NCBI GenBank assembly: GCA_021904315.1
Contig: CM038919.1
Coordinates: 19,709,666 to 19,773,665 of the forward strand
From: Sphagnum magellanicum
Taxonomy: Eukaryota > Streptophyta > Sphagnopsida > Sphagnales > Sphagnaceae
Length of the DNA stretch: 64,000 nt
Reading direction: 5' to 3'
Shown here piece after piece: positions 3,816 through 64,000 of this stretch. A program made the translations under genes and the position numbers. The notes under the pieces are model-generated. The model was not told the origin of the DNA. It saw only the letters and a list, made by a program, of their open reading frames with translations, and did no database searches. Numbering within the stretch: position 1 is the first letter of the stretch; the number at the start of each line of letters is the position of its first letter.

Positions 3816-3839
3816 TATGTGATATTTTTGTCATTGCAT

Positions 3840-4765
3840 CATTAGGAACATTTTTTCCTATCCTACCTATGTACCCTAACTTGCCTACCCTAATTATGTA
3901 ATTATCTTAAATTACCTTAGGCTATTTTTTATCATTTTGGGCTATTTCTACGACATTTTAAGTTCTATTTAAGTTATTCTAGACTAATTAACCTTAGCCT
4001 ATATTATGTTATTATAAATTAGTTTTAGATTTTATAGGCTATTTCACTCCATGTTTTTTTTTTTGTTGATTATTTTAAGTTATTTTAAAGTTATTCTATC
4101 CTTAGTTATTCGAAATTATTTTAAGATGTATTATTGAAAGATATTATAGGTTATGTTACCCTAGGTTATTATTGGTTATTATTGATTTTTTAAGATTATT
4201 CTTGGCCTTTCTTAATTATTTTAACCTATTTTATTCTAGGTTATTTTTATTATTTAAAGATATTCTACTCTAAATTATTCAAGGTTATTTTACTTTACTC
4301 CTTCTAAGTTATTATCATTTATTCTACCTTAAGTTATTATACATTTATTTTCAATTATTTTACCTTATACCATTCTTAATAATGATACATTAGGCTACTT
4401 TAAGTTATTCTCGATTATTGTACCTTAGTCTATTAGGTTTTTAAAATTATTCTCAATTATTTTATTTTAAGCTATTTTAGGTTATTATATTTAAATTTTA
4501 TTAATCTTAGATTATTTTAAGTTATTATACCCTAATGTATTAATAGTTTCAAATAGCTTATAATATCTTATAATAACTTGGGTAGAATAACCTAAAATAA
4601 CCTAGGGAATAATAGCTTAAAATAGGCTAAAAATAACAACCTTTCAAATAGCCTTGAATAAAGTAATCTAAAATAACTTTAAATGATTTTATGTAAAATA
4701 ACTTTGAATAGCCTAAAGTAGAATACATAAATTAGCTTAAATAAAATAGTTTAAAGTGTAACTAG
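3840..4765. repeat. strand-switching short-period AT array
   Basis: From about 3840 to 4530 the plus strand is built of degenerate units around GTTATTCTA, TTATTTTAGG and AGGTTATT. From about 4540 to 4765 the same units appear as the complement (AATAACCTA, TAAAATAACC). The array therefore reverses orientation near 4535 and forms a long imperfect inverted repeat. No coding sequence is present. It lies inside the interval bounded by the CACTA-like ends at 2793 and 11308. Confidence 0.65.
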
Positions 4766-4769
4766 GTGA

Positions 4770-7430
4770 AAATCCTATGAAGTGTACCACTAAAGACAAA
4801 AATGACCTAATCCTTATTGTGGTCATCTTTTCCTTATATTTTGATCCCCATCAAAATTAACGAATCAAAAATGTTAAATATTTCATAAACACCATATTTT
4901 AATCCAATAAAATTTTTAATTCCATCATAATCATCCATAAATATGCTTTTACATGGTAAAAAAAATTATGTAAAAAAATATATATAAAGGTCAAAGCATT
5001 GTGATAAGATTTTAGTACATTTAAAAAAATTTGGACCCATTTACTAATATGTTATTTGTAATCTATTAGTAGGCTACCTGGAACAAGGTTTTTAGGAAAT
5101 TAACTAATTCATGACTCTAGTCATGGGACTAATTGTGTAATCATAATTATGGCATTAATTGTGAAAATGACATAGTTGCAAGTTCAATATGCTTACATGA
5201 TTAGGTTTGAGACATAATTGCAAAAGTCTCCAATCATAAAACCACATTTTTACAACAATGTATCTTCTAAAATATCAAAAAATAAAATAAAAAACGTGTT
5301 AACATTTTCATACTCTAAGACATTTAATTTGTTACAAATAATTGCATTGGCCTCAACAATAGTTTCATTGAATGCATCTTCCACCTTTACAACTATTTCA
5401 AATATCGTAGGATGGATTCAAAGCATTGAATCATTTAGGAAGCCAAATATTATGGTACTCAAAAACAAATTCCATGAATTGATAATAAGGAATAAAAGAT
5501 CCAAATATGGATTAATGCTTCCATGAACATTTCTTGAAGCTTGGTTGAGATCACAACAACTTGTTCAATAGGTTATTTTGCGTTTGTTCACTTTCCCATT
5601 TAATTGTAATCAGTAAAACAACAAAACAATAAGTTGTTTATAGAAAGATGGCACTCTCCACTTGTATGATTTATAAAAAATCTTTTAGAACTCTAAGACT
5701 TAATATACAAACTTCAAGTATTTTGAATTGGACTTTGTGAAACTTAAGGAGAAACCAATCAAAATCATGGATTCTTGTTAAGAGATTTCAAATTCACTTT
5801 TGGGTTTAATTTTGTTCTTATTTTTAGCATTGTCTTTCATAGTCTTCCATTATAAAAATTCACACCAATCCCTTCGGCTATACAATTTCATGAGTTCAAG
5901 ATCATTGTTGTTTACAAGGTTCATTTCATAAAGTATTCCATTCTACACCATTTGCACTTTCACAAATAGACTATTCTTAATCTATTTGTCGTTTGCTTGA
6001 AAATGGTTTTATGGAATCAAGGGGATGATAAAACAATAATATGCAGTTCATGATATGCGTATGCATTTCCTATGACATGTATTTATTGTAAAAAGGTGTG
6101 TTTGCATAAATGAACTACTCATTGCATAACAAACAAAAGGGTAAATTTTGAAGGATTGTAGGGGTTTCAAGGGTGCCATCGTGATGAAAAGGTTTTTAAA
6201 ACTTTTTTAAAAAAACATGGTAAGCTATTGGTTGTGTTTGAACAACTTGGCCTCAACCTTTTATAATTTGGCAAATGTGATGGGTTTTAGGAGAGAATTT
6301 GATAGTCACAACATACGAAACAAAGTGAGCCTCTACAAAAGTTGATGTTAATAACAAATCAACAAATATGAAGAGAACATGACATAGATTAGCTTTGACA
6401 AAAAGTTTGACATTCACAACAATAGATTCACAAATGTGAGGAAACATGACATGAATGTTCAAGAAAAAAAATTCATGCTCACAACAACATATTGGCAAAT
6501 GCAAGGAGAACACAACATGTACTTTCAATAAAAAAATTGACACTCACAATAGATCGACAAAATTTGTTTGAATTACACGTAATGCTTGTGGTTTGTACCT
6601 GATCAATATTTTATTATGGCTTGAGATTATCCATTATCACCTCTGCATCACGTTGCTTCTTCGACTTCCTACTAAAAGACCTAAACATATGTTCCCATAT
6701 ATTGAAACTTGATTTTGATTCTATACCTTCAAGCTCATCATCAATGATTAACCCTTGGCCCTCATTACATTTTCGACATCCCAACTCACCAAAACATAGT
6801 CCCAAACCCTCCTACTAAAACACCATGCTTGAATCAAACAACTTAATAACTTCAAACAAACTTTCAAAACAAATACAAATGTTCGAACTTCCATCTCCAA
6901 CAACCTAAAAGCATAGAGGCAGACTCTCCTACAAAAACACAATGTTTCCATCTTCATCACACAAATCATTAAAATCTACCCATTCCATCTCCTTTCCATT
7001 TCCAACAACACTCATTTTTCACAAGTACCAAATTCAAGATTGCAATATGAATCAAATCTCATCCTACAAACCTTGTGAGGAGATGAAAAAATCTTACCTC
7101 CATCAATATGGTGATCTTTACATTGAAGGCTGGAATGTTGTTAAAGATGGTAGTAACTAATTATAAGGGAGTGGAGGTGTGAGTGCAGGCGACAAGATGT
7201 GCATTGTGTAGCATCTAATGGCGAGGGGCAAATGCACATTGTAGATCTTCAGGTTGGCAAGAGCTTTGCTTTCCAGCATCAATTCCTTGTGACAAATCCA
7301 AATCCTTCAGGCCATTCACATGGAGTCTGCTAACCTGTCGTGCAGTAGAGATAGAGAAGTGCCATATTTGATAAACCCCTGCAATTCTTCTTGTGCATTG
7401 AGATCAGCAGGCTTTATCATGTTATTTTTC
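4770..7430. other. gene-free AT-rich stretch
   Basis: Several open frames of 60-100 codons exist (for example at 5218-5526 and 6253-6543), but none shows a recognisable motif or gene-like composition. The last 250 bases before the TFIIE-alpha pseudogene are richer in GC and may be its upstream intron or flank. Confidence 0.5.
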
Positions 7431-13049: not shown

Positions 13050-13950
13050 TATAAGTGTTGTAGGAAGACATTTTTCTATGAATATTACATCTCAAAAGAT
13101 ATTAAATGAAGATTATTGGTGACCTACTTTGTATTGAGATACATTTGATTATTGTAAATCATGTGATTCACATCAATGCACATGTAATCTTTCCACATAG
13201 ATTTGGGCAAAGAACTTTACTAGAAGAACCATTTACGAAATGGGGATTGGATGTTTTTGGACAAATCAAACTTGTAGGACAACTTACTAGAAATTGGTAT
13301 ATTTTTGTTATTATCAATTATGCTACCAAATGGGTTGAAGCAAAGGCTTTTTTAAAAAATACTACTACAACCACTACAAAATTTCAATTTGAATATATCT
13401 GTGTGTGATTTGGTTGTTCAATGTATATCGTCACCAATCAAAGTGTGCATTTTATAAATGATGTTGTTTGGTATCTTACCCACCATTTTTTTAATGTATC
13501 ATACAAATTCTACAATGTATTAACTCTAGGGTAATGGTCAAGCCAAGTCAACATGTAAAAAATTGATTAATCATATTTTATTTACCAAACTTGTTAACAA
13601 AAAAAATATTGATTGGGATGAACGTATATCAACTTTTTTTTTTCTTACCAAATTTCTTACAAAATGAAAATTGGTCATACCTCATTTTAAATGGTGTACA
13701 AATTACATCCATTAACACCCAACAAAGCTCCAATTGTTAATTTTGAAACATTGTATGGACATGGAATTTTAATTCCCAATTAAGACTTATAAAAATTGAT
13801 ATTTTTACATATCAATTTTTTATATGTTCCCATGTTGACTAACACTCATTAGTCCACACAAAAGGTTCCAATGTGCTTAAGCTTAGTAAAAGGTTCCATT
13901 ATGAAAACAAAGTTCCAAATGAAATATCAATAAATTTGAGCCATTGCATT
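13050..13950 (+). mobile_element. Ty3/gypsy LTR-retrotransposon fossil (integrase region)
   Basis: The region shows the integrase zinc-binding segment followed by the start of the integrase core (WGLDVFGQIK, YATKWVEAKA), in the order expected for a Ty3/gypsy element. It is a broken fossil with several breaks, probably old given its divergence and AT drift. I did not find the long terminal repeats, gag, protease or reverse transcriptase parts in the flanks. Confidence 0.75.
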
Positions 13951-17009: not shown

Positions 17010-18400
17010 ATTTTTGAATTGTTGCATATTATATGATTTTTACAGTTATATATATTGATGTGATGACAAGACATGTTTATGTTTAAATTGATGTGATATG
17101 TTAAAACAAATTTATGTGTCACATATAACTCTACAAAGAAGCCCCAAAGAGGAGGAGGCAAAAACCCCATATGTATAAGATGTTTTCCTGAGTATGAGTT
17201 TGCCACACTTCTAGTTAATGCTTTTTGGATACCACATGAACATGTTTTTGATCTTGTGCAAGTCTAGCCATGAATGTTTGGTTAATAGTTCGTCCTATCA
17301 CACTTACATTTTGTTTGTCCTCAACTCACTATTTTATAACAATACATATTCACCTTGGCTTGTTACAACTTATATAGTTGCACATTTTTCACAATATGGA
17401 CATACCATTGATGATTTGAGTATCCATTTGCTTTGATGCCCATGTGGGAGTGAGCACATTGCAACTCACAATATTCTTCAATATACCATCACAACTATTT
17501 GTTTTGGAGAGTGGAACACATGTACAAAAAGAGGTTTCCCACCTTTTTCCTTGCTAGACTTGATGATAAGTCAATATTCTTATCACTAGAGATGGTTATC
17601 GAACCTTAACAAACGATGCCAAAGCTTATTTAACATGTCCAAATATGATACAATGTGCGTCATCCATGGCAACGTATGTAGCAACAAACACAGACATAAC
17701 ACACGTTAAGAGATGACTTCATTCCCCTTGCCATAGAGACTTATGGTTGTCTTCATTTTTGTTTTGACTCCTTTTTTACTTCTTGTGCTTAGGCCATTAT
17801 AGCTGGTCATTAATGGTTCCTATCATGGTTATTTCTTATTATGAGCAATGTGTGTCCATAGTTGTCCAACATGGGCAAGCCATTGCAATTCTTCAGTGTG
17901 TTGCTACGTTTGGGAATCAATCCTCATCATTTCCACACATCATAACTAGTGCACCTCCATTGCTAATATCAAAATTATATGATGCCTTTTTAGTTTATGG
18001 TCTTCTATTGTTATGCTGTATTAGTGGTGTCCTAATTATTATGTTCTTTCAGGACATGTGTTCTCATGCTTTTATTCCACATGAGTGTATGTAAAGTAGC
18101 ACTCATGTGGGATATATCACTCATGTGGTATAATTTGGGGCCTACAATTGACTCACGCAGATAAGATGGTATCCACTTGAAACTCATGGTTGGTTGTTGA
18201 GTATCCGTGACTACTTCCCAATTGGCCAACAATGAGGTTGTACATGTATGCACCCAGCTTTGATGCCCAGATAGTGTGGGCTTAAAGTGGGCTTTTAGGC
18301 CCACTTTAACCACCCAAAAGAAAAAAAGGAAGGCCACTAGTTTTTGGCCTGGTCTAATAGCCCTTCCTTAGAACACCCTACCTATTAACCTGGTCTACAA
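17010..18400. other. gene-free stretch
   Basis: Composition becomes more balanced after 17500. A 103-codon open frame at 17783-18094 is rich in hydrophobic residues but matches no family I know, and a frame overlaps it on the other strand. No promoter or splice context supports a gene. Confidence 0.45.
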
Positions 18401-18423
18401 AACCTAGGGCCTTAGTGTTTAAA

Positions 18424-18455
18424 CCTAAAAGTGATTAAGCTTAATCACTTTTAGG
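18424..18455. repeat. perfect 32-bp palindrome flanked by direct repeats
   Basis: The arms CCTAAAAGTGATTAAG and CTTAATCACTTTTAGG are exact complements with no spacer. The palindrome begins inside one copy of GGGCCTTAGTGTTTAAACC (18407-18425) and ends inside a second, GGGCCTTAGGGTTTAAACC (18454-18472). A third partial copy follows at about 18475. Confidence 0.9.
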
Positions 18456-18733
18456 GCCTTAGGGTTTAAACCAGCTTAGTGCCTTAGTAAACCCTTGGTG
18501 GGCCAGCTTGATCCCATATTAAAATGCATTTTGGGCAAGTAAATGCAAAGCAAATGGACTTCAAAAATGAACTTCAAGTCTTGGGCCTAAGAAGACACCC
18601 TGTGTCCTCACACAGACCATCCTCATCCTCTCCACATCTCAACATGGAACTTTCTGTCCAATGGTTTAAGATTGAAACAGAATTATATTCATAGAGATGG
18701 GTTATCTATCTATGAAGGAAGATAGTTTGTTGG

Positions 18734-22842: not shown

Positions 22843-23795
22843 GTATGAGACCCGTTTCTCAGCTTTTATTTTGTTTTCAGAGCCGTACGTGCTCTTTTAT
22901 CCGATTTCATATTTTTAGAGACCAGCTCATCTTGCAAGAATTCCTGCATGGAAAAGCATCATGATTTCATGTGGATAACATGCAGAAAACAGTGTTGCTC
23001 CTTTTGATGGAACTGTTTTGGATCCAATAAACCCCCTTTTCAGTCAAGAGTACTCCTAGTTTTGCCATCTTTGTCTTCTCTCTTCATGGTGCTCAATGTT
23101 AGTCTTGGATACATCTTCAATGCTTTTATGGACTCCTTTTGTGTCTGCTGCACTTCTCGTAAGATTGCCTTTATGCTGAATGTTTCAGCATCCAGGTTTA
23201 TTTTTCAGTTTCAGTTCCTGAGTTCTTCATTTTTGTCACAAGAATGGTTCAAAAGACATCTCATAGTTCATCCCTCAATCATCTTCGATTTTGGTGCCAC
23301 TCACTTCTCTGTCATGATGTTTGATTTTTGTTAACCAGACACCCTGTCTGTATACAAACAAGGGTTACAGTATTAGTGTACACATACAGAGGGTGTTGAA
23401 TAGGCTTGTGTGTAGGCGTGTAGAAAAAGTGTTATGGCCAATGAAATTGCTGGATTTGATTGTCTGAATTCTTCTTCTTAGTTATCTTGAGTAAACTAAC
23501 AGCTAAATATGTAATGGGCTTTGGTAGTTTTATGAGAATTTGAGTGGACCAATGGAGATGGTAGAAATGGAACATTATTTTCAATTTTCAGCAGAATAGG
23601 GTAGTGTGTAGTCCTGAAGAATTTTTTATTCAGGCCAATGGGATTGCTGCATTTGATGGTCTGAATTTTTTTTCTTAGTTATCTTGAGTGAAACTAATAG
23701 TTCAATGTGTAATAGCTATTTATAGACAGGGGTCTAGGACATTATTTGTGCACTTCGTTATATTCTGCTCTGATATCCAGTATTTTGAATGACAG
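22843..23795 (+). other. probable 5'-leader intron of the PAP gene
   Basis: The interval begins GTATGAGACC and ends TTGAATGACAG, 15 bases before the ATG at 23811. It contains a local duplication: 23436-23525 and 23633-23720 share GGCCAATG, ATTGCTG, TTTGAT, GTCTGAATT and TTCTTAGTTATCTTGAGT, at a spacing of 197 bp. An open frame at 23062-23334 has no recognisable content. Confidence 0.5.
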
Positions 23796-23810
23796 ATCGT
23801 GATTCAGAAA

Positions 23811-26481
23811 ATGGAGGGTGGGACCATCCAATTCATCATCTTCTTGCTCATCATAATAGTGATAAAAGAAAGCTTAGTGGAGGCTGTGAGTCTAGAAGCA
23901 ACACCAACAGAGCTAGCAAAATCTGGTGACACCATCACACTAACATGGAAGGACATGACAACACCCTCAGATCTTGACTGGCTTGGAATTTACACACCCC
24001 CTGAATCCACCGATGACCATTTCATTGGCTACATCTTGCTCTCCTCCTGCAAGGGTTGGGAATCTGGCATGGGCGCATATGAGTTTGTGGCTCTCAACAT
24101 GAGAGCTCCATACGAGTTTCGGCTTTTCAAGGGGTATCCACCTGATGCAGAGACACCTTTGGATGAGGACAAAAACCCATTGCCTAGCACCAAGCAGCGT
24201 CTTGCAGTTAGTCCAACAGTCAGGTTTCATTGCCCAAATCAACCAACTCAACTCCATCTCTCTCTCACATCAAACATGTCTGAGATGCGGGTCATATTTG
24301 TGACCAAGGATCCGCTGAGAAGCTTTGTTCAATATGGGAGGAATGCTGACAATTTGCATTTGAGTGTGGGGGCTTTGTCACAAACCTATCAGCAATCAGA
24401 TATGTGTGCTGCACCTGCAAATTCTGCGATAGGTTGGCGGGATCCAGGCTTTATTCATACTGCACTTCTTCATGAACTGGATTCTGGAGCAAGATACTTT
24501 TACAAGGTAAAATCTTCCTCCATCCTCCCTTTTTTCTGTATCCTTCCTCCTTTGGGTCTAGATATTACAAGAACCCTGAGGCATGTATGTGCATTTGTAA
24601 TTTCTCCCAGTCTCCCATGCTCTTGGATGTTCAGGTTTCATGTATAAGCTCTTTGAGGGTTCAATCCACTTTGCTAAGCTTCAGTGCCTCTCTCTTGGTT
24701 TATTTCTCTCCCTCCTGTAATATGGAATTTTACTGTAATAGGAACTTGTGTCTCAGGGTTTCTTCGGGTCAACACTCTGGCAAAGGAAATTCTCCCTCAG
24801 TCTGTAGGCTCTGTGTTGTCAATAGCTGGCAGTACAGATCGCTGTAAGTGAATCCGAAATCGCTTAATCATTGGGGGGTTCAGCACTCTATGACTAACCA
24901 AATAAAAGAGCTATATTGGGATAGCTTTGGAGGGCTTAGAATCACAACCAATCCATGTTTTAGCTCAGAGGATAGTAGCTTTATGCTATGACTTAATTTG
25001 TTGCTCATAGAGCCATGAAACATTTGTAGGTCTCCTGGCAAATTATGAAACTGTGTGCCTGTAACTGGCAACACATCAAAGTTGTCTCCTACTGGTAGCT
25101 GACACAGGAACTAGCATATGCATGTGCACACTGGCAACTCTAATTGGTGATATGATCCTCCTTGATGGTGGGCTGGTAAGTTACTAACAAATGCACTGGA
25201 TCTTTGCAGGTGGGAAGCATTGAAGGGGGCTGGAGTGAAACTTTCAGCTTCATAGCACCACTGGAAGAAGCAGAAGAGACAAATGCTTTCCTATTTGGAG
25301 ACCTGGGAACATGGGTGCCATACACTACTTTCAATTGGGTTCAGCTGGAAAGCGTGAACACAATCAAATGGCTTCTTCGTGATCTTGAGAATCTTGGGAG
25401 TAAGCCCACTTTCATATCACATATTGGTGATATAAGTTATGCTCGAGGATATGCATGGATGTGGGATGCTTTTTTTGCGCAAATTGAGCCTGTAGCTGCT
25501 CGTGCCCCATATCATGTTTGCATTGGAAACCATGAATATGACTGGCCAGAACAACCCTGGAAACCTGAATGGGCCCCATATGGAACTGATGGGGGTGGTG
25601 AATGTGGAGTTCCATTTAGTCTAAGGTTTCATATGCCTGGTGACTCAAGTTTGGCCACTGGGACTGGATCACCAGCAACAAGGAATCTCTACTACTCACA
25701 TGACGTTGGCAGTGTGCATTTTCTTTACTTCTCAACAGAGACAAATTTCATATCTGGTAGTGACCAATACAGTTTTATAGCCCAGGACTTGAAGAGTGTG
25801 AACAGGAGTAAAACTCCCTTTATTGTGTTTTTGGGGCACAGGCCAATGTATTCGACAGACAGCAATCTCATGGATGCTGCATTTACAAAGTCTTTGCGAT
25901 CACACATTGAACCATTGTTGGTCGAGAACAGAGTGAATCTTGTGTTGTGGGGTCATGTTCACAAGTATGAGCGGACATGCCCAATCCAAAATTCATCCTG
26001 CATGGACTCAAATACACTTGATGGTGCATTGCCAATCCATATAGTGATAGGAATGGGTGGGCAAGATTGGCAGCCGATCGACCAACCCCGAGCCAACCAT
26101 CCAACATTTCCAATCTTTCCACAACCCAGTTGGTCTCTGTTCCGGAGCTTTGAATTTGGGTACATCCGTCTCCATGCCACAAAGCAAGTAATGACAGTCT
26201 CGTATGTTGGGAACCATGATGGACAAGTTCATGATGTTGTGAAGATCCATTCCCACTTTGGGCACTTTAAACACATCAAGCTTTCAGAGAAGTATGGTAT
26301 CCACATTCACAAAATTTGGTCTGCTTTGACTTCAATTTATGGTTTTGTTACCTTGTGTGCTGTCTCCGCATCTCTTGTGGTTGCTGCAGCCATTGTGATA
26401 TCCATTAGGCTGTATTCAAAGAGGGACTCAGAGAGGTCTAGAGGTCCATGGCATATCTTGAGAACAGAGGAGATGACATAG
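23811..26481 (+). CDS. purple acid phosphatase, PAP2/PAP9 type, membrane-anchored
   Basis: Metallophosphatase with a dinuclear metal centre that hydrolyses phosphate esters. CDS exons 23811-24506 and 25210-26481 (GT-AG intron 24507-25209) give 655 aa, the usual size for the PAP2/PAP9 group. The first 28 residues form a signal or anchor segment. A fibronectin-like N-terminal domain (about 30-230) is followed by the phosphatase domain with GDLG (Asp263), GDISY (Asp306, Tyr309), GNHE (Asn339), LGHRPMY and GHVHKYER. The position corresponding to V in the VxxH motif is Phe (FLGH), though the ligand His is kept. A hydrophobic segment near residues 605-635 followed by RLYSKRD would anchor the C terminus; in Arabidopsis PAP2 such a tail targets plastid and mitochondrial outer membranes, so a similar location is possible here. 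The ATG at 23811 is preferred over an in-frame GTG at 23799. It converges on the legumain gene. Confidence 0.95.
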
Positions 26482-27724: not shown

Positions 27725-30700
27725 CTATGCACTGTAACCTGCAGAGATGGGGGTCCAGAAACCTGGGCGACTGCTACAGGCCTGCTCTGCAGCTGAGGCC
27801 ATTTTAGTGGCATCAAGACCAGCATTGCAAACATTTGCAAACGCTCGCATGTGCTTCATGCCGTACTGTGTGAGTGGTCCACAGTGTGACTCAAAGGTGT
27901 GCACCTGCATTCAGAATGTCCAAAAATTAGGAAGATAGACAAACATTCAGTCAGGATATGCACCACATGAAAATTAGGAAGACAAAGATTCAGTCAGGAC
28001 ATACACCACGTGGGAGGAGGTACTGCAAATGTAGCAGGAACAGAGGATTTGAAGACTAGGAATATCACATCGAGAACAAGCCATATGGTTTGACTCAGTT
28101 GAGACATTCAGAGCACAAAGACAGGGGACTAAACTGGATGAGCCCGAAACAGAACACTATCAAGATGGAGCCACTCATCTGTGGTACTAAATGACATCAA
28201 GCAGGACCTAGTTCATACAAGGGCTTTGGTCAACGTAAATATAGACAAACTCCAGCTCCCCCCCAAGTCCACACAAATGTGCAAGTGCAAACTCTGCTAA
28301 AAATTCTGTGTTACAATCTTACCATGCTCTTGAGGCAATCCCAGTCATCAACTAGAACTTGCCCAGCAGGACGTACAGCATTCAGTTTGGAAGCACCAAC
28401 ATCAGTGCCAAAGAGGAGATTGCCAATGAGTTCTACACTGCTGTCAAGGTGCATACGATGGGCCATTGTGTTCACCAACTCCTCCCCTGCTTTTGATTTC
28501 CTTGTTGATCCCTCTACAGCTTTATGGTACTGCAAAACACTCAAATCCAAGAAATTGCTTGAGGAAACTACACCATTTTGACCTGCTTCCGTTTTTTTGT
28601 TGAGATGACAAACCGAATAGCAAATCTGCTCCAGGAAATGTAAGATGGAAAGACCAATGGGACAATACTATACCTTGTGCCACAGATGAAGTAGATCCGC
28701 ATCACGCTGATTCACAGCAGATTCCTTTCCTGCCATTAATGTGCTGGCCAAGTTCACTCCAGGCAGCACAGGCTTTGTCACATTCTCATTTGCAGGGTCA
28801 AATCCAAGATATCGCTCCATCTCCTCAACATCAATGTTTATGTCTCCATATTGCATCACATGTGACCCTGTCCTGTAAGTTTCATGGTTTGAAGTTCTTG
28901 CTTTCACCTGTATGCATATAGTTTATCAATATGAAAGGCACATACTACACTATGAGAGGAACACAACCCACAGTCACCAGAATGTTCTCCACTATCTGCA
29001 ACTACTTCTTTCCTGTGCCAGAATGCAGAAGACAGCATCCCTGCTTTCCCCTTCCACTTGCATCCTGGAGAAGTGAAGTTCTACTTATTCCTCTGGAAAG
29101 AATTCAGAAGAAAGGGATGACAATTCATTATGATACAGGCATTCAAACATACACAGCAGGATGGAAGCGACTCACAATGACATACTGATCCTCAAGAGTT
29201 TCTTTTTTCAGGTTTTGAATCTCGCTGCAACCCACAAAATTATGCAAAAGACTTCAGAAGCATGCAAGATTTAATTACATCTCCCTACCCCCAAAGTCAC
29301 AGTGTAGGCTACACAGAACATATAACCCATGAAACATTTGGTGCCTTCCTCAAGTCTCTTCATGTCTAAATAAGACAATTGACAGGAAACCAAATATAAT
29401 GCATCTGGTCAAGCAACTAGCCAGATACTGGCATTGTGTGTAAAGCAGGTACTCACACATCTTCCATCCAGGCAACACTGTAGAGATCACCTAAGCAGGT
29501 GTAAAATTCTGGAGGAGGTGCTGGCCACATGCCTGGGCAGTATGTTCCCCAGCTGCTCTCCTGTGCATTTGAGGCAGTGGTGACATATATGTTCAGGCCC
29601 TCTGGCAAGAGTCCCTCGAAAATGCTTCCACTCTCACAAGCCTCTACGTATATCACCTGAGGCACACAGGCAAGAACATGTTTCAGATAAAAGGAATTTC
29701 AAATGAAGTTACATACCAGTTTTCAGAAGCACAACTTGCAATCTGGGTCACTGCTATAAAACTGTCCTGAACTTTTGAAAGAAGCTTTTACCAGTACTCG
29801 GTATGGTAAAACACCACCAAACATCCACACACTTTGACAACATGAAGTGGCTTGTTTCAAACAGGTATTTTGGTCTGTTCCAAAACTACTGCTTAACAAA
29901 TAGGTTTCAATTTGCAGGCCAATTAGCTGGAAGGCAGAGATTGCTGCACTCCATCTTGTTTTGACTTACTTTGAAGTATGTACTCATGTGAACACCTATA
30001 CTAGTTAACTATTCTTTAGCACATCATTGTAATTTCCTCCTAGGCAAAGGGTTTGGTAAAACTATGCCTAAGCAAATTCCTTGATGTACAGCACCGGTGC
30101 AAACCAGAGCTTCAGTAACTGGAACACAACCAGAACAAAAGTGCCTACCATCTCTTTGTATGTGCCAGATTCATGCTTCTTCTTCAGAGTCTCCACAAAG
30201 TCAACAGCATAGAGATTGTTTGAAGTGGGCATACCTGTGGCACACTAGTAAAATATTAGCAAGTGGTTGAACTGGAAAGAATCAAATTCAGTAAGTAATA
30301 TCACCTAGTGCATTTCTTCATGACCAGAAACAGTCTTTTTGTTAAGGGAAAGGTCAGACACATTTGCAATGCATGGAAACAAAGAAACATACCGAGAACA
30401 CCAGGACCACCATGGTCAGTGTAATAGATGAAGATGTGGTCATTGGGACCACTATCCACCACCTTGCCACTGCCACCCTCGATGCCACTCTTGTCTCCCA
30501 AAATTGCTGCAAAGAAGTTGGAAACTGTCACATCTTGCCCTGTGTAGTCCTGGACAGCACAAAGCAGAAAGACACATTCAAGGCACCTTAGTACATTACA
30601 GAAGCAAAACAGGCCTGCTTGCAATGATCCCCTAAATGAAGAAAACATGGAAAAACATGTGTCATCACAGGGATATACTGCAAATACATCAATTCTATGA

Positions 30701-31724
30701 CTTAGTTTTCAAAACTAGTAGAAAATATATCTTCCTTGACAGTTTGCAGTAATAAACAGCTACAGAAGGACAATTCTATGAGGCAACCGGGAACCCACCA
30801 CTTCACAAAGTGCAAATGATCTCAAAAACACAAAGAATGAACTCGTACTCAAATTCACTGAGATTAGTTGGAAAGCAGACTAAAAACATGGAAACATCTG
30901 GAGAAAAAAACAGAGGACACCACTACTACTACAACTTCATGCAGAAGTACAGTTCTTTCTCAGGAGCACACTTCAAAGAAAGTTTGCATCGTCACTGGTC
31001 TCAAGGCATACATGGGAAATTTCCAGAATAGAGAAAAGAAAGCTCAAGACATTCCAGAAGAAAAAATTAATTTTGAAGTGGTCTTAGGTCAAGGACATAC
31101 CTTGGGAACTCCATGGTAGACATCACTACCTTCAGGGTGGTTGATGATAGTGCCTGGGTATGGATTTTCTGGGTTATGTGCAATATCGTCATACATGAAC
31201 ACAATGATGTTCTCATCCTTCAAGCCTCCTTTCTTCAGTATCTGGTATGCGTGGCACACATCAGCCTGCCATATCACACCCCAACAACATCAGTGAGCAT
31301 GGAAATGTTTGTTTGTTTCTCCTTTCCAGCGAGGGAGATTAGGATCATCAGCTCAAGGACACGAACGACAAAAGCCAAATTTCTATTTTCCCCTTCACAA
31401 GATAATAGACATGCATGAAAGTGAACTTCTCCACAGGGGGAAACGCTCTCGGCATCTCCATTCTTAGAAAAAGTTTTTAGAGAAAAAACTGAGTTAGTGG
31501 ATCAGTCAGGGAACTGCCAGCACCTGATGGCGGTAGTTGCCGTAACCAGCTGAGCCTGCAAGAAGCACGGCCCAACGTACTCCCGCTCTATCAGACGGCT
31601 CCTCCTCTTCCGCCTTCGGCATCACGATTTTGCCGTCCCATGTGGCTTTCCTGGCTGCTGCTGCGCTTCCTACAAGCAGAAACGCTAACAAACTCGCCAC
31701 CAAAACTCCCAACACGGAATCCAT
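27725..31724 (-). CDS. legumain / vacuolar processing enzyme (asparaginyl endopeptidase)
   Basis: Cysteine protease of family C13 that cleaves after Asn or Asp and matures vacuolar and seed proteins. Nine exons: 31724-31524, 31265-31101, 30549-30393, 30234-30149, 29656-29457, 29224-29176, 28907-28674, 28529-28323, 27904-27725. All eight introns are GT-AG and the exons join in frame to 492 aa, the normal family length; nine exons is also the common layout in plant VPE genes. Residues 1-24 form a signal peptide. The caspase-like domain has [29 protein letters not shown] (catalytic His168) and VEACESGS (catalytic Cys210). The C-terminal prodomain ends with [18 protein letters not shown]. Nothing is missing, so it should be functional. 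Expected site of action is the vacuole. A leader intron lies upstream, and the gene converges on the phosphatase gene. Confidence 0.97.

Positions 31725-37549: not shown

Positions 37550-37579
<30 letters not shown>
37550..37579 (+). repeat. poly-C tract (about 30 C)
   Basis: The longest cytosine run in the window, preceded by CTCTCTCCT and followed by TCCACCC. The minus-strand open frame across it has a glycine run caused by the tract. Confidence 0.85.
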
Positions 37580-55366: not shown

Positions 55367-57748
55367 TTTTGTAATAGTGAAAGCAAATGTCATTACAAGA
55401 AATATTGTATTATATAACCATCCAATTTGCGACTACATGCGACTGTCCATCATTTGCAACTATGTTTTATAATTTTTACAACTAATAACCATCTTTTTAA
55501 TTTTCTTATTATTTTTGCAACTATGATGTGATTACTATATTGCACATCCCTCCATATTAACTAAGTTTTTCGATTATTCGTCCAAGAATAGGCCCTTATG
55601 TTCATTTAGTCACAAATTTGGTTGTAGTTTGGTTACTTTTGCAATGTGCCCATACATTTAATGTACATTAAGATGTTTTTGACTACATTAAAAATATATT
55701 TAACATGTAACAAAACTACATGAAGTGTATATTAAAACGTATTTAAATATATTTAACCTATATTCAACGCATGTTGAACTCATATTATTTCATACTATGA
55801 ACATATTAAAAAAAAAAATTTCACCTTGATTTCATATTATGGTTTTTTTACAAATATACCATGTTTATTTTGATGTATAATTAAATTATAGTGGTAAGGT
55901 CATATTAAGATGACATAATCTTAATTTCAAACTAATATTCATTATTCATAAAATAGTAATATCAAAAAATTGATTAAATAATGTAAAATATGGAATAATA
56001 ATTAACTAAATAAATATGATTTTAATGAATCAATCATTTAGTTTTATAATTTATTCTTGAATAGTTTATTAATAATAATTGATCAACTAATACACATAAT
56101 TAATTAATTATAAGAATTTAAAAAAAAAATGATGTATTCTTTATTTCATCATTTAATAGTGACTAATCAATAAATAATTTAAAAAAATTTAATTAGTATT
56201 TTAATCTCTTTATTTAACCAATTAAATATTTTAGCAATTAATATTCAATATTTACTGATTTATTTGACAAGTTTTTCATTTCAAGTTATTAATCAAACTA
56301 CAAATTATAAAAAAATAATTAATAAGTTAATTATTAATTCATTAATTTTCATTTAATTATTTGATCATTAATATTTACTAATCAAGAGATATGGTAAATA
56401 AAAAATAAATATTACTTAATTAATATTTATTTAGATTATAAAAATTAATAAATATTTATTTATTTATATTATAAAATATTAATTAAAATTTCCCAAATTC
56501 AAATACTTAGTTATTTAAAAATGATTAATTAAATTTATTTTCCATTTAATTCATAACTTCCGAATTAATAACTAATGTTTATTGATCAGTTCAGAATTTA
56601 TTAAAATTTAATTAACACTTCAATTAGTTATTCAATTAATTATCTCATAATCCATATTTACTAATCAAGAGTTATGGTAAATAGATAATAAATAATAACT
56701 AATTAATAGTTATGTAGCTTATAAAATATTAATTAAAATATCAAAAATTCGATTATCTAGTTATTTTAATGATTCATTAAATCGATTTCCTATTTAATTC
56801 ATAAGTTTAGAATTAATAATTAATTTTTATTAATTAGTTAAAAATTTATCAAAAGTTCATTAATACTTCGGTTAATTATCTAATAATTCATATTTACTAC
56901 TCAAAAGTTATAGTAAATAGATAATAAATATTAGTTTATTAATAATTTTTGTAGCTTATATAAGATTAATTAAAATTTCACAAATTCAATTATCTAGTTA
57001 TTTATTAATGATTAATTAATTAAATTGATTTCCTATTTAGTTCATAAGTTCAGAATTAATAATTTAATAATTGGTTTAAGTTTTATTAAAAGTTAATGAA
57101 TACTTTAGTTAATAATTTAAATGATATTTATCGATTAAATAACTTGATAACTTAATAATATAATATATAATATTCAATATTTATTATTATTTAATAATTA
57201 AATATATAAGATAGTTAATCATTTATTTATTTATTTATTTGTTCAATTAGTTGATAACTAAAACTTAAAAGGTTAAGTTTCAAAAATTAAAGTTATTAGT
57301 AATAATAGTTTTATTAAATTTAGAATTAAAATAATGACTAGTTAATTAATTTCATAAAATAATTACATATTGTTGATGAATTATGATTATGAATTAATTG
57401 ATTAGTTAGTGAAAAAAATGAAATAAAAGTGAATGTTAGTTTCAGAATTAAATAATTAAAAAATGGTAGGTAATTATAGGTAGGTTTGTAAGTGGGTAGG
57501 TAGGTAGGTAGGTAATTAATTAATGGTTAATTGATTTATGAGCTACTTAATTAGTTTCCTTTTTACTTATTTAATTATATAGTTATGTAGTTTACAAAAC
57601 AAAACACAAGCACAGAGCATATGGGCTAAATTTTTTAGTTATAACTCAATTTGCAACTAAGGTGCAACTACAAAATTTAACCGATATGTGTTGTCTTTTT
57701 TCTCATCTTGGTAACTATATAACAAAGGTGCCTTTCACTATTACAAAA
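55367..57748. mobile_element. AT-rich block bounded by 17-bp inverted repeats
   Basis: TTTTGTAATAGTGAAAG at 55367-55383 recurs as its exact complement at 57732-57748. Just inside both ends lie several GCAACTA/GCGACTA motifs (left 55428-55525, right 57650-57715), like subterminal repeats of a DNA transposon. The interior is extremely AT-rich, with no coding sequence and a tandem array (see 56370-57120). Read outward, the right boundary is CACTATTACAAAA, so an alternative is that the two boundaries are ends of separate CACTA-like elements that face away from each other. It abuts the truncated start of the hAT relic. Confidence 0.55.
56370..57120 (+). repeat. AT-rich tandem array, ~235-285-bp units
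   Basis: Three diverged units are anchored on TATTTACTAATCAAGAGATA (about 56372), TATTTACTAATCAAGAGTTA (about 56655) and TATTTACTACTCAAAAGTTA (about 56890). Each continues with a TAATTAAAAT block, a TTATCTAGTTATT-like block and a CCTATTTAATTCATAAGTT-like block. A diverged part-unit precedes the first. Confidence 0.75.
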
Positions 57749-57759: not shown

Positions 57760-58680
57760 AAGAGGTTCAAATTGATTAATTTGTCATTTTGATTAAAGGC
57801 TAGGGCTTGAATGACACATATATTTATCCTAGGGGGGGACATTACTCAAAAAAATTAAAAAATATGTGAATAAAAATATAGGGTGCAATATATTGGTTGT
57901 GACGTAAAAGTTATAAGTTAATTATTTAAAAATAGGGTGATATATATTTTGAAAATCATATTATAATAAATATAAGGTATGTGTAAATATGTAATATTAA
58001 TTTTTTAAAATAAAAAAATAGCATGTGTAGTATAAAATAAATGTATTAGTTATTAGTAGGTTCAATTATTATGAAATAATGTTGATTAATTATTTTTTGA
58101 TTGTATATGATGCTTATAGGGTCAATAAATTAATTGAAGCAAAACTAGGTTTAGGACATTTAAGTGAACATGGAAAAAAACCATTTAAAAATTTAAGTTT
58201 GACATTTTTGACAATTAAGGTTTTAGACTTTAGGGTTACAAGGAGGTGGCGGCGATGTCTTCTAGTAAAAGAACCTTGTTTCTTTTTTTTGAAGGTTCAA
58301 ACACATGTTTGTACATTTTGTTTCTTCAACATGGTTGGAAGGATTTTTGTGGTCAAACAAATTTTGAATTTATGTTTCAAGGAGCACGCAAGCAAAGGCA
58401 AGCAAGTAGTCAAGGGTGAGCAAGGGCAAGCAAACAAACAAACAATCTTAATTTTTTTCATTTGCAATGGTTTTGAGATTTGATTTTTGGGCTAAAGGTT
58501 AGATTCTTGAGATTTTTGAGCCGAAAGAAGCAAGATGTTTTCCAAGCAACATTTTCCAAGTTTCTCCTTCACCTATATTCTATTCTTTCAAGGGATGTGT
58601 GTGTTTGTGTGTGTATCAAAGGCAAGCTTCAGGATCTTGCCAAGGAAACAAATCTTCAAGTGTAGTCTAGTGTAATAAAC
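57760..58680. other. gene-free stretch
   Basis: AT-rich to 58200, then more balanced. A 134-codon open frame at 58079-58483 ends in a lysine/glutamine-rich segment from an AGCAAGGGCAAGCAAACAAA-type simple repeat; no family is recognised. A (GT)n-like stretch lies at about 58595-58615. Confidence 0.45.
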
Positions 58681-58689
58681 ATGTTAAGG

Positions 58690-58860
58690 TTGAGGCTAAT
58701 GACCACACCACCACTTGGACAACCATCACCAGTGCTGGTATTTTAAGGAATCATCTAAAGGATGTCATGAATGATTTGCAAATGCTTCGACAAAGCGTGA
58801 TGGACAACCACAAAGACGCCATTGAACAATTTGAACTTTCACGCACTTTCAAAGGTAATT
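58690..58860 (+). pseudogene. syntaxin (SYP1-type Qa-SNARE) fragment
   Basis: One frame reads WTTITSAGILRNHLKDVMND followed by LQMLRQSVMDNHKDAIEQ. Plant SYP1 syntaxins, such as the cytokinesis syntaxin KNOLLE, have at this place a stretch of the form TSxxTxGLRKKLKxxMxxFQ then LRQKMMxEYKETVERRYF. The match covers the end of the Habc domain only. The RRYF motif, the SNARE helix and the membrane anchor are not found nearby, so this is at best an isolated exon fragment. Confidence 0.4.
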
Positions 58861-59628
58861 TTTGTAGCAAAGTTGAGAGAATGAAATTACATTTACAATG
58901 GTGGCAATGGCATATTGTTGTTGTTTTCAGAAAGTGGTTTGAAGGCGAATAGAGGGAAGAATGTGAGTAGTAAATAACTTAGGCTTATTAGTAGTAGGAG
59001 CTCATTCATTAATGGTTATTCTTTCAAATATGAATGTTTGTGCATGCAGGCAGTTAAGCCCAAAATGCCTTTTTTTAAGAAACAACTTTAGAAGGAGGTG
59101 CATTCCATGTTTGTGATTACAAAAACTAGCAAAATTTTAACTAACTCCGATGATGCGATTTTGGAATATGTGCTTTATCTCTTGATTAATTACCTGATTT
59201 TCTAGTTCATTTATTGTTTATTTATTTCTACCCCATCTCCTCCACTAGCTTGCTTTCCAGTAACATTCCAATTAATCAAAGACCCTTTTGGGGATCAAGT
59301 TGTTGTTGGTGACAATTCAAGGAAAAAACCAATTGAGAAGTGTTTACAACTTTGCAAAATTCCTCTTGACCTAACCATTGCATGTAGGGCGAGCTTTTGA
59401 TCAACTGCATGTGTTCTTCATCACAACCAATTCGTCCTCAATAGATAGCAAGGTTCAAGGAGGAGGAGGAGAGATTTGAAATGGAGCAGTTCAGTGTACC
59501 TATTTGAAGATCATGACAACACCAACAACAAATCATCAATGTAGCATTGGAAGCTTTGGGTGAGCAATTGGCTAGAGAAGGAGCAAGCTGCAATAACAGT
59601 AGCAACAATAGGCGAAGATCAAACCTGG

Positions 59629-59790
59629 CTGCTTCCTAGTTTTTATTTCCACCCCAGAGTTAAAGAGGTTGTCAACTATTACTTGGCCTAGAAAGTATGT
59701 AACAACAACTTCAACGTGCATGCCATAGCCGAAGTAAACTTCAACAAATGCGAGCCTTGTGACCTCCCTAACAAGAAGTTCTCTCGTTAA
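59629..59790 (+). pseudogene. NAC-domain transcription factor fragment
   Basis: The frame reads LLPSFYFHPRVKEVVNYYL, an in-frame stop, then KVCNNNFNVHAIAEVNFNK and CEPCDLPNKKFSR. These correspond to NAC subdomains A and B (LPPGFRFHPTDEELVxYYLxxKV then AIAEVDLNKCEPWDLP). The canonical PGFRFHPTDEE is changed to PSFYFHPRVKE, a stop interrupts the helix, and the frame ends before subdomain C. It is a dead fragment of a host transcription-factor gene. Confidence 0.85.
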
Positions 59791-60504
59791 GAAACTCAAG
59801 TTCTTTCTTTTGTTTTTTCTTTCAAATATACAAACCCAAAAACCACCTACAGATCATCTACAAGCCCAGAATGCTACTCATTTTGTCATGCTTTCTAGAC
59901 ACAAGATCTAAGAATTAACAAACAATCCAACATCAATGAAAAAACTTGTTGTGATTTGGACATAAACAAACATCAACGCCCTGAGTTGTGCTTAGACTTT
60001 GTCTGCATGCACCTTTTAGTTGAACCTAGAGAATCAATCAAAGTTGCAAGACTTGAGGAAGAAATGAGCCTTGAATCATATTTCCTTCAAGATTCAGCTC
60101 CATGAATCCTTTTTGTAGGCTTGATTGTAGAGGTTGGGAAGTAACAACAAAAGAAATTGGGATGCAGCCTAAACCCAAAAAAACCTGATTTGAGCAGATA
60201 TGATGTTCTATGTATCACACAAACATTGTGTGATGGGGTGCTTAGGGATCAATTGCCACCCAACTTGTTTCAATATAATAGTTCAACAAATTTGGACTTC
60301 TTGATGATACCATTCAAAATTGGCTTGCCTACATTTGTTTTGTGTTCATATTGGCTATGCTAGTCGAATTGATTACTTGGGGTTGACATTTGATGATGGC
60401 ACATAAATTAGCAATCAAGTGGGAGATTTTGGAAGTTGTAAATAGTAGGTGATAACTTTTGGTGACCAAGAGAGTTGAAGTTGTTTTTGCAACACTTAAA
60501 CAAA

Positions 60505-61563
60505 ATGGGGAGCATGATGAAGGAAGATAAGCGGCATGAAATGATGATTAAGAAGCTCTTAAAGATGCCCCAAAACAAGTGCTACATCAATTGTGATAGT
60601 GTGGTTAACATGTTTCCCCTCTTTCCGTTTTTTGGGCATTATCAAGATTAGAAAACCCGTGCACAAATATGCACTTTTGAATGTCTTTTAGGTTTCCTCA
60701 TGAAGATTTTCTTGCCTAGGAAATCATTTTGTAGCTTAAGAGTACCTAGTATAGTACATGATGAAGTATGGATTTCTTCACTACCTCACACATGAAGTTT
60801 CAAATGTGTGAAGATGACAAGAGATCAAAGGAAAATGATTGGCTAACCTACACAGAAGTCATGGATACTTATGCTCTCAAACCATTCTAGTCAAGGCATT
60901 TTTTTGGCACACACAATGCAAGGTGGGGAATTGACTTGAAAAATTGTTTGGTTTTGGGATTTTATGTTAATAATGAAAACACATAATGGTATTGATTTGG
61001 AGAGTGTTGAGATGACATGGACCTCAATATGTTTGCACAAACTTTTCCATGTATTGTCTATACACAATGCAGTGGTGTGCAATAAGTGCTCCTCCCCCCC
61101 CCCCCCCCCCCCCCCCCCCACCATCCCCTTGCCTATAAGTTCTAAACTTGAGGCTGCTGCAACAACCACACCTACTTTGGATCCATTTACACCCCTTGCA
61201 ACCACAACCACCATGGACCCCTTTTCATTTGTTGCAAATGGCACTATGGGTGATCCATTTCAACCTACTAAACCCAATATAACAATGTATGTTGCATTTC
61301 CACCTGCATCAAACCCACTTGGCGATCCCTTTCAACCAAATGTTACAACTGCTAACCCATTTGCACTTGCCTCAACAATCAAACATGTTTCTGACTTGTT
61401 TTCTCTTGGGGTACAAGCAAACAATGTGTCTTTCAGTACCATTAGTGTTTTAGCTTTTGATTCACTTGCTACAAGTGCTCCTCCAAGTGGTTATCCCAAT
61501 ATTTTTGGGTTGAGCACTACAAATGGTTCGACACAATGGGCTACTACACCTGTTGGACTCTGA
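60505..61563 (+). pseudogene. ArfGAP (AGD14-type) pseudogene
   Basis: The ATG at 60505 opens MGSMMKEDKRHEMMIKKLLK, then NKCYINCDS, matching the start of the plant AGD14/NEVERSHED ArfGAP group (MGSRKEEERNEKIIRGLMKL, RRCINCNSLG). The remaining zinc-finger part (CTTFWTFVCxxC) is not recognisable and the frame is interrupted. From 60964 to 61563 a 199-codon frame encodes a low-complexity tail with repeated DPF and NPF motifs (LDPFTPL, MDPFSFV, GDPFQPT, GDPFQPN, NPFALA) of the kind used to bind adaptor-ear and EH domains, fitting the same protein's C-terminal half. A poly-C tract at 61094-61119 encodes a proline run there. The catalytic finger is lost, so it cannot act as a GAP. Confidence 0.65.
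61094..61119 (+). repeat. poly-C tract (about 26 C)
   Basis: Uninterrupted cytosine run within the frame of the ArfGAP-like tail, giving a short polyproline run. Confidence 0.85.
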
Positions 61564-63486
61564 GTTCAAGCGCAATTGATGTTTGGTCTACCTTTCAGGC
61601 GTGACCATCAGTTGTTCTTTCAACTGCATGTCTATTGCAACTAAGGTGAGGTCTGGGAGGATGTACATTGAAGTGCTATTGTTGTTAAATTTGAAACACA
61701 ACCAATTTTGATTAATTTAAAAGCTTTTTAGAAAGTAGGTAGAGAAATATTTAACACAAAAGATTTAAGATGAGCAGTGCAATTTAGAGATGTAATTGCC
61801 TGTGTTTGAAAAGAGGCAAGCAATTCCGTTTCAAAATTGCACTGCTTTTTTGTTAGGAACAAATCTGTTGTATAACATGGTTTGCAAATACACTGAATTT
61901 TTTTTGGCAGTGCTTTCAGAGAACAAATAGATGGACTTTGCCTTCCTCATGGGACTCAGGCCTTGGGCTTGGGACCAAGTCCTTCACACTATGGCACACC
62001 GACTCCCCAGAATACTATTGTTTATTGTACCCCAAGGCCCTGATTTCCATGGGACTTTGCCTCTTCTTGTCGGGACTTATGAAATTGGGCTGGCCCTGGG
62101 ACGTGGTGTGAAGAGGACCTACCTAAGACTCAAGTAGAAGCTTGACAAAGAAGAAGAAACAGGGGAAACATTTCAACACATTCAACCACACTTTGGAAGC
62201 GTGTGGGTTTTACGAGCTTAGTAAAAACCCCAATGTAAAGGTGAGCAATCCATCAGCCCTGGGAAGCAAGGGAATGTGCCTTTTCATTGTCATGTGCAGG
62301 TACTGAGGGGCTTGCTGAGCTGCACTGGAGGTGGCTTGAGACACCATTGAGGTTTCTGTAATTTCTGTGCCAGTTTGGGTCACTTTGCTTTCTTCCATGG
62401 TTCTTTTCCTTGTGTGATGTTTGCAAATGTGTGCTCTGGTTTTGACTGTGAATCTGGTGGCTGCTGTTGTGATTTGGTCTGAGATGCGTGGTACAATCTG
62501 TCCCTGTTCTAGCATTTGCTCTTGGAATCGCAAAATTTGGTACATGTGCAGGTGAAGGTTCAGATGGATAAATTGTGGACCTGTGCTATCATCTTAATTG
62601 TTGTGGAAAATGTAATATGAGACCATGAGATTTCTGAAGGAGAATTGAAAGCTAGAGTGCATACTATTCAATATTCAAGAGATTTGGACAGGGAAATATG
62701 TCATAAGGAGTTGTTTCCCATTATCATTCAATAAAGAAACTAGTTCAACCAAGTTTCTACTTATGACTCTCAAGTGGAGATCGTGCATTTTCTATCAAAA
62801 GTTCTTACTTTCAAATGTCTCAATGTTTTTTGTTTTCCTTTTCTTCATCCTTAACATTTCCAAGTTTCTTCCATTTATTGCCCTTTTCTTTTTCACTTTT
62901 TCTTTGTCTTTGTGTTACCCTTTCGATATCAGTTTTCCAGTCTTACTTGTCTTTCAATGAAGCTTTGTGTTCCTCCTTGTTAGTTTTTGGGTCTTGTTGT
63001 CTTTCAAGTTTGTTGAGCTACTCAGTATCATGGCTGAGTTCTGCCTTTACTGCATTATAGCAATGTCAATTTTTCCAAAAAAACCTATGTCAATGTATGT
63101 TCCAATGTATGTCTGAAACTCAGTAACTTCGCTCATTGCTAGGAACTGGTAAAAAGTTGGGTACTAAGACAGTTATATATGTAACAGTACCCTAGGGAGA
63201 ACATGTGGTACACCTGCATCACCATCTAAATATAATTTACATTTGAAAATTTCTTTCATGTTGTTTATGATTATTCAAAGGTGGCTTGTGGCTGAAGCAC
63301 AAAGAGAGTCAGCTTCAAATACAATATTTTCTCTTAAGTCACCAGTTCATTTGCCAAAGCGTAAAAAAGTAGCATGAAGAAGAGTTGACCTGTGAACAGA
63401 AGTTTCCTTCTATCTTGAATGAGGTTCAGTCCTAAGCTCACTGGCAATCACTGAGGAAGAACCTTGAACAGACTCATCAAAAAGCA
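61564..63486. other. stretch between ArfGAP pseudogene and the VTE6-like gene
   Basis: The first kilobase has gene-like composition and could be further exons or the 3' tail of the ArfGAP-related copy; frames at 61931-62137 (+) and 62210-62545 (-) are unrecognised. The right part, up to 63486, should include the 3' untranslated region of the VTE6-like gene on the minus strand. Confidence 0.45.
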
Positions 63487-64000
63487 TTAGGGCAAAACTC
63501 CTGCAATGGATTGTGTTGGAAACAATAAAAGCCCTAAAATAACTGTAGTAAGGGGAACTGTGAGATTGTCATCAAACCTGTTTGTGATAGGTAGTGATTC
63601 AACAAGAGTTGCTGCCAGAGATACAGCAGCCAGCTGTAGGGCCACCCCTTGCAGATCAAATGGATAGAAGCCCATGAAAGAGAAGTACCATAGACACCTG
63701 TCAAAAAGACCAGTCACTTTGTAAAAAGTCTGTCCAAGGATCACCTCAACATCCGCAGTGTAGCTTTATGAAGAAATCATGACACCATACAAGTCTGCTG
63801 TTAACCATCACATAGGCTTCAACCTGAGTGTAAGTCAGGGAAAAGTTTGCTAGTAGGATATGGCTGTGACCAGATTCTTGTGTGAAGAATTATGAAAATT
63901 GGGTCAACACAGGTTGTGGGACATACCCGAGTGAAACAACAAAGCCAAAGAGAAACATGGTGATACTTCCAGCCCAGCTTTTCTCTGAGTTGTAGGGAAG
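63487..64000 (-). CDS. VTE6-like phytyl-phosphate kinase, last two exons (partial)
   Basis: Integral membrane protein of the chloroplast that phosphorylates phytyl phosphate to phytyl diphosphate for tocopherol synthesis. Exon 63927-64000 (continuing past the window) encodes LPYNSEKSWAGSITMFLFGF; after a GT-AG intron (63926-63698) the final exon 63697-63487 encodes LQLAAVSLAATLVESLPIT and FDDNLTVPLTTVILG, ending in TAA at 63489-63487. SWAGSISMFxFGF and VxSxVATVVESLPITxxxDDNxSVPLxT are hallmarks of the VTE6 family. Three hydrophobic segments are visible. The exons join in frame with no defect. The N-terminal part, including any transit peptide, lies beyond the right edge. A related polyprenol kinase is the main alternative. 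Confidence 0.88.

What the first reader, a model, noticed from the sequence alone, without database searches (positions are those of the whole stretch)
58690..61563. Same-strand cluster of three unrelated host-gene fragments
Within 2.9 kb, in one orientation, lie a syntaxin-like helix, the first part of a NAC domain and an AGD14-type ArfGAP copy. Unrelated exon pieces lined up on one strand are typical of gene-capturing Helitrons or Pack-type DNA transposons. No complete set of element ends was found, so the carrier is unknown and may be of an unfamiliar type.
Basis: partly seen in the sequence, partly recalled or inferred. Interest (0 to 1): 0.7.

Follow-up and report, generated by a model that had tools for sequence, protein, structure and literature searches.

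The report
Gene-fragment-carrying DNA transposon in a moss
The cluster is a decayed, cut-short copy of a jumping DNA element that had stitched together pieces of four different host genes and then spread to several chromosomes; this is a known kind of gene shuffling, but the element carrying it could not be placed in a known transposon family.

Summary
Donor-type genes lie on other contigs. Intron DNA is retained, so capture was at DNA level. The set is one transposed unit: five insertions (this window, C6, two on C10, C1) share the NAC|ArfGAP junction and two internal deletions at near-equal distances (K2P 0.16-0.19). The carrier has short terminal inverted repeats (about CCYNRRGGGGACAYT). 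Flanking repeats of 7-10 bp, mostly 7-8, mark 6 of 14 elements examined (8 of 182 mispaired controls). The C6 copy is 11.2 kb. The window copy starts at 57828 and is cut off at 61663, so no complete ends were visible; both ends were seen in 2 of the 5 insertions. Helitron and CACTA signatures are not met; no MULE or hAT domain was found. The element's own decayed gene matches no Pfam family well (weak P-element-like hint, E=0.005). Best reading: a Pack-type TIR element of unassigned superfamily, filled by serial template switching. Genome size suggests Sphagnum.

The parts
57820..57827 (.). presumed left half of the target-site duplication (ATATTTAT); its partner is lost with the right end of this copy
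   Evidence: position relative to the TIR as in sister elements; inference for this copy
57828..57843 (+). left terminal inverted repeat CCTAGGGGGGGACATT
   Evidence: sharp common boundary in own, c6, c10a, c10b, c1a, c1b; inverted counterpart at the right ends of c6 and c1a
57828..58329 (+). left subterminal region of the element family, with ARGGTR motifs at 57880, 57934 and 57974
   Evidence: shared from 57833 with the 1-kb deletion relative L036 (89%); motif count; left end has 863 first-look candidates genome-wide, 40 scored
58739..58827 (+). syntaxin exon piece (protein similarity from about 58700)
   Evidence: 76% DNA identity to the syntaxin-type gene at C10:12855006; PF00804 E=6.8e-4
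   Evidence: alignment to the PFK gene on C5; PF00365 E=3e-23 for the donor's later exons
59211..60163 (+). NAC gene piece 1: 5' region, exon 1 (NAC domain 59635-59844) and part of intron 1
   Evidence: 78% DNA identity to the NAC gene on C15; NAM E=3.6e-10
60176..60310 (+). NAC gene piece 2: end of the last exon, joined to piece 1 by an internal deletion of about 1.5 kb shared by the five copies compared
60305..61112 (+). AGD14-type ArfGAP piece 1: 5' region, exon 1 (ATG at 60505), intron 1, exon 2; about 148 bp lost at 60727, in this copy only among the five
   Evidence: 87-90% DNA identity to the ArfGAP gene on C2; gap table
61138..61663 (+). ArfGAP piece 2: later coding exon with DPF/NPF motifs, joined by a deletion of about 1.77 kb shared by the five copies compared; this copy is cut off at 61663

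Best explanation
This is a truncated, decayed copy of a Pack-type (gene-capturing) terminal-inverted-repeat DNA transposon. The ancestor had its own gene, subterminal repeats, about 14-bp inverted ends and made target duplications of about 8 bp. Repair synthesis inside the element switched templates between host loci: it copied a syntaxin piece and part of a phosphofructokinase gene, and a further event placed genomic DNA of a NAC gene and an ArfGAP gene inside the phosphofructokinase piece. The composite, 11.2 kb in the C6 copy, lost two internal stretches and was then moved to at least five places in a short time by a transposase acting on its ends. The window copy later lost its right two thirds. 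Shown: ends, target duplications in a part of the elements, copies, donor-type genes, junctions, shared deletions, retained introns, nesting. Inferred: template switching as the capture step, cut-and-paste mobility, and the identity of the transposase.
For: Multi-copy unit with shared junction and shared deletions. Common left end with unrelated flanks. Inverted right end in c6 and c1a. Target duplications: 6 of 14 elements with an exact flank match of 7 bp or more against 8 of 182 mispaired controls; 73 of 100000 shuffled pairings as high. Donor-type genes and retained introns. NAC+ArfGAP lie inside the PFK piece, PFK resuming right of ArfGAP in c6, c10a and c1a. Overlaps of about 4-7 nt at three junctions (PFK|NAC, NAC|ArfGAP, ArfGAP|PFK). 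Near-equal pairwise distances, K2P 0.163-0.192. Small relatives with the same ends: 15 of 40 scored left ends have a scored right end within 0.56-1.9 kb on the same strand. Element's own gene.
Against: Both ends were seen in only 2 of the 5 insertions (c6, c1a); c10a is interrupted, c10b is rearranged (its right part lies inverted further on) and the window copy is truncated. Of these two, c6 has a 7-bp exact flank repeat and c1a only 6 bp. Target duplications are below 7 bp or absent in 8 of 14 elements, and the anchors were set by hand after the repeats had been seen by eye on the same 14 elements. No autonomous copy was seen: the element gene is broken in the matches found, apart from short open frames. 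Junction overlaps are short and blurred by 15-20% divergence. The syntaxin gene on C10 is only 76% alike over 89 bp and may be a paralogue of the true donor. No transcript or excision data exist here.
Confidence: 0.92

Rival explanations
1. A gene-capturing Helitron (rolling-circle element) carried the fragments.
For: Several unrelated fragments in one orientation; in 4 of 6 left ends (own, c6, c10a, c10b) the boundary reads A|TCCT, which superficially fits A|TC.
Against: Inverted ends and target duplications; the right ends of c6 and c1a read RTRTCCCC and not CTRR.
Confidence: 0.02
2. Three or four independent pseudogene remnants that happen to lie together.
For: All pieces are decayed; a plant genome may hold many pseudogenes.
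Against: The same pieces, the NAC|ArfGAP junction and two internal deletions recur at four other places.
Confidence: 0.01
3. A processed (RNA-copied) chimeric transcript inserted by a retrotransposon.
For: Same-sense order of all pieces.
Against: Intron DNA of NAC and ArfGAP is retained; DNA-element ends are present. A poly(A) tail was not searched for.
Confidence: 0.01
4. Segmental (patchwork) duplication of a composite region without transposition.
For: Two of the places, c1a and c1b on C1, are indeed a local duplication that includes flanking DNA at 92% identity.
Against: Own, c6, c10a, c10b and c1a share nothing recognisable left of the terminus; flank repeats of 7 bp at c6 and 6 bp at c1a, and of 7-10 bp at five small relatives.
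Confidence: 0.04

Closest known systems
Pack-TYPE transposons (Pack-MULE, Pack-CACTA, Pack-hAT and others; PMC8903248, passages seen)
   Same: Non-autonomous TIR element carrying copied host-gene DNA, present in several copies, with target duplications in its family.
   Different: Superfamily not assignable; five captured stretches from four genes, two of them nested inside another capture; the composite still carries remains of the element's own gene; bryophyte host (inferred).
[quoted passage not shown]
   Same: Short overlaps at junctions; multi-copy chimera moved after capture.
   Different: Described there for animals; here several donors in series.
P elements and zebrafish P-like elements (PMC7776569, passages seen)
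   Same: 8-bp target duplications; 13-bp TIR and 400-bp spacers in the zebrafish form; internally deleted derivatives; weak RNase H (PF21787) hint in one open frame.
   Different: The Pfam match is below its cut-off and seen in 1 of 6 members; PF21787 not found in this genome at E<=0.001, although the control genomes were silent too.
hAT elements
   Same: 8-bp target duplications (PMC8903248 passage), short TIR, subterminal repeats (recalled).
   Different: No hAT domain found in the frames searched; TIR does not start YARNG (consensus recalled).

Membership tests
Pack-type TIR DNA transposon | host-gene DNA enclosed between the two terminal inverted repeats | tested here: met
   c6 and c1a have both ends with donor-type gene DNA inside; the window copy itself lacks the right end
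Pack-type TIR DNA transposon | target-site duplication flanking copies | tested here: met
   6 of 14 elements of the family with exact matches of 7 bp or more against 8 of 182 mispaired controls; among the gene-carrying copies c6 has 7 bp, c1a 6 bp, the other three could not be tested
Pack-type TIR DNA transposon | donor genes present elsewhere as intact-looking loci | tested here: met
   PFK, NAC and ArfGAP exons open and matching Pfam (exons spliced by eye); syntaxin relative
Helitron | 5' TC, 3' CTRR with hairpin, no target duplication (recalled) | tested here: not met
CACTA | ends CACTA, 3-bp target duplication (recalled; PMC8903248 passage gives 5 nt), Transposase_21-type protein (recalled) | tested here: not met
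   element starts CC..GGGGACA and flank repeats are mostly 7-8 bp; no such Pfam hit in c10a frames or c6 ORFs
Mutator-like (MULE) | 8-11, mostly 9, bp target duplication and MULE transposase (recalled) | tested here: inconclusive
   flank repeats of 7, 7, 7, 8, 8 and 10 bp do not exclude it; no MULE domain in the decayed frames searched
hAT | 8-bp target duplication | tested here: inconclusive
   about 8 bp (7-10) in 6 of 14 elements
hAT | hAT dimerisation domain or BED finger in the transposase | tested here: not met
   a CxxC...HxxxxH pattern is present by eye only, and the gene is decayed
P element | 8-bp target duplication | tested here: inconclusive
   about 8 bp (7-10) in 6 of 14 elements; family feature from PMC7776569 passages
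P element | P-type RNase H / GTP-binding / THAP domains | tested here: inconclusive
   PF21787 E=0.005 below cut-off in 1 of 6 members; nothing in PDB by profile; none in genome at E<=0.001; structure prediction never ran

The most novel reading that the evidence does not exclude
A moss lineage carries a TIR transposon superfamily not represented in Pfam, with target duplications of about 8 bp, CCYNRRGGGGACAYT ends and its own RNase-H-like transposase gene, for which no intact copy was seen, and which built multi-donor chimeras by nested repair synthesis and dispersed them in a burst.
Probability: 0.3. Interest if true: 0.7.

Novelty: new variant of a known kind. Interest (0 to 1): 0.5.

Why it matters
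Pack-type capture is documented mainly in flowering plants and, as Pack-TIRs, in animals (PMC8903248 and PMC8277862, passages). This case gives five sister copies, donor-type genes and small relatives in one genome, so the order of capture events can be read: NAC and ArfGAP DNA lie inside an earlier phosphofructokinase capture. It also exposes an abundant inverted-repeat family whose decayed gene matches no Pfam family well; the Sphagnum genome paper lists unclassified repeats as its most abundant repeat type (PMC9946827, passage).

Tried and rejected
Helitron ends: rejected after the right end and target duplications were found. Long repeats or long inverted repeats around the cluster inside the window: none that fit, since the right end of this copy is lost. 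Transposase domains in the right part of c10a (six frames, stops read as glycine) and in ten c6 proteins: none convincing. PDB relatives of the element gene: none. Relatives in viral contigs: none confirmed. First attempt at the target-duplication statistic (3 of 20000) mis-anchored several ends (C3a, C18, C4 and C10 visibly); it was redone with hand-set anchors. L034 (no right end found in the piece) and L035 (right end mis-anchored) were left out of the 14. P-element family scan of the genome: nothing, controls silent. Codon-position test on the element gene: no third-position excess among the recent copies nor between c6 and C4 (38/46/27); third-position excess between c6 and the older C18 copy, 47/45/86 over two ORFs. 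My eye-reading of 13106-13405 as a retrotransposon integrase piece gave no Pfam hit. A 2026 review of gene capture in plants held none of six terms asked, superfamily and moss among them (PMC13317346).

Full report
Observation. The three reverse frames of 58200-61801 gave no Pfam hit at E<=1.

Genome context. The window is C13:19709666-19773665 of a 439-Mb assembly of 31 contigs. The size equals that printed for Sphagnum divinum (439 Mb; PMC9946827 passage; PMC13120521 table passage). The species is an inference from size only.

Copies. A DNA search with 58690-61563 gave 27 matches, the fragment set recurring at 81-85% identity. After fetching flanks, pairwise comparison showed five insertions carrying the NAC|ArfGAP junction: the window, C6 (c6), C10 at 15.22 Mb (c10a), C10 at 16.86 Mb (c10b) and C1 at 17.04 Mb (c1a). 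A sixth place, C1 at 17.33 Mb (c1b), holds only the left part and is a local duplicate of c1a that includes flanking DNA (92%). c1a and c1b lack the phosphofructokinase piece and the start of NAC.

Ends. The six copies begin at the same base, window 57835 in the GGGGACA core, with unrelated DNA to the left apart from the c1a/c1b pair. c6 and c1a also share a right end...RTRTCCCC, which is the inverse of the left end. In c10a the right part is interrupted by another repeat, in c10b it lies inverted further on, and the window copy lacks it. The C6 copy is 11.2 kb. A related 0.7-kb element with the same ends lies next to it. Genome-wide, the left end gave 863 first-look candidates (40 scored) and the right end 343 (40 scored); 15 of the 40 scored left ends have a scored right end 0.56-1.9 kb away on the same strand. 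One of these, read in full, is two ends of about 500 bp of the large element joined.

Target duplications. For 14 elements with both ends (ten small ones fetched as end pairs, plus c6, c1a, the neighbour of c6 and the C7 element), exact repeats of 7 bp or more with at least three A/T letters flank 6 of 14 (7, 7, 7, 8, 8 and 10 bp), against 8 of 182 mispaired flanks; 73 of 100000 shuffled pairings reach the observed sum. They are TGTTTGTC (C18), TAAAATAT (C3), GAAATAT (c6), CTCCTAT (C13), TTTTGAA (C3) and GGGCAAATTG (C4). c1a has only 6 bp. In five of the six the repeat sits 8-9 nt outside the left GACA core, which makes the inverted repeat about CCYNRRGGGGACAYT (six ends per side chosen by hand). 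Eight of 14 fall short, and the anchors were set by hand after the repeats had been noticed by eye.

Donor-type genes. ArfGAP: gene on C2 with open exons matching PF01412 at 6e-26; about 5.1 kb of it, introns included, corresponds to the element. NAC: gene on C15 (PF02365, 2.6e-51). Syntaxin: a syntaxin-type gene on C10, 76% over 89 bp. Thus NAC and ArfGAP DNA sits inside the phosphofructokinase piece. The five copies share an internal deletion in NAC of about 1.5 kb and one in ArfGAP of about 1.77 kb, so they descend from one composite. Overlaps of about 4-7 nt occur at PFK|NAC, NAC|ArfGAP and ArfGAP|PFK; they fit template switching at microhomology but are too short to prove it.

History. 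Pairwise distances among own, c6, c10a, c10b and c1a are near equal (K2P 0.163-0.192 over 3167-3898 sites), as expected for a short burst followed by decay. The window copy has also lost about 148 bp at 60727 and everything right of 61663.

Element gene. Right of the captured DNA, c6 holds decayed ORFs. Protein searches found relatives at other places that are not among the 27 matches for the fragment cluster, for example C4:14396489-14397585, where the family's right end lies 2.5 kb downstream on the same strand. The matches found are broken, apart from short open frames such as 198 aa in c1a. Substitutions among recent copies show no third-position excess; between c6 and the older C18 copy the third position leads (47/45/86 over two ORFs). 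This points to a formerly functional gene belonging to the element. Pfam is silent except PF21787 (P-element-type RNase H, E=0.005, below cut-off, 1 of 6 members), and a scan of the genome with that family found nothing at E<=0.001, its controls being silent too. Structure prediction could not be run.

Comparison. By ends plus captured DNA the thing is a Pack-type TIR element (PMC8903248, passages). It is not a Helitron, and CACTA signatures are not met; MULE is not excluded by the flank repeats but no MULE domain was found. A duplication of about 8 bp would fit hAT or P; neither is shown at protein level. I saw no description of this family in my literature searches, which cover only an open-licence library and of which I saw listings with starts of abstracts, plus passages of five papers.

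Check.

Noticed in passing
window 23793-26478 (+): Purple acid phosphatase gene (Metallophos 3.4e-16, N- and C-terminal PAP domains).
   Followed up: partly
window 30304-30708 (-): Legumain / vacuolar processing enzyme exon (Peptidase C13, 2.7e-20).
   Followed up: partly
window 63490-63765 (-): Looks by eye (recall) like a phytol kinase exon just right of the element; no Pfam hit.
   Followed up: partly
window 56469-57064: AT-rich tandem repeat with a period of about 240-250 bp a short way left of the element.
   Followed up: no
window 182-217, about 36790, 37550-37579, 61094-61119: Poly-C tracts of more than 20 nt; the one at 61094 lies at the ArfGAP deletion junction and is longer than in the four sister copies.
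   Followed up: partly
c10a (L009+L010): copy positions 5778-6599 and 17824-18633; similar stretches near c10b, c1a, c1b, c6 and in L023: A separate repeat of about 0.8 kb present twice, in opposite orientation, inside the C10 copy of the element and near other copies.
   Followed up: no
both ends of c6, c1a, L036; left end of the window copy: ARGGTR motifs repeated 2-4 times per end, all but one in the same orientation at both ends, possible transposase-binding sites.
   Followed up: partly
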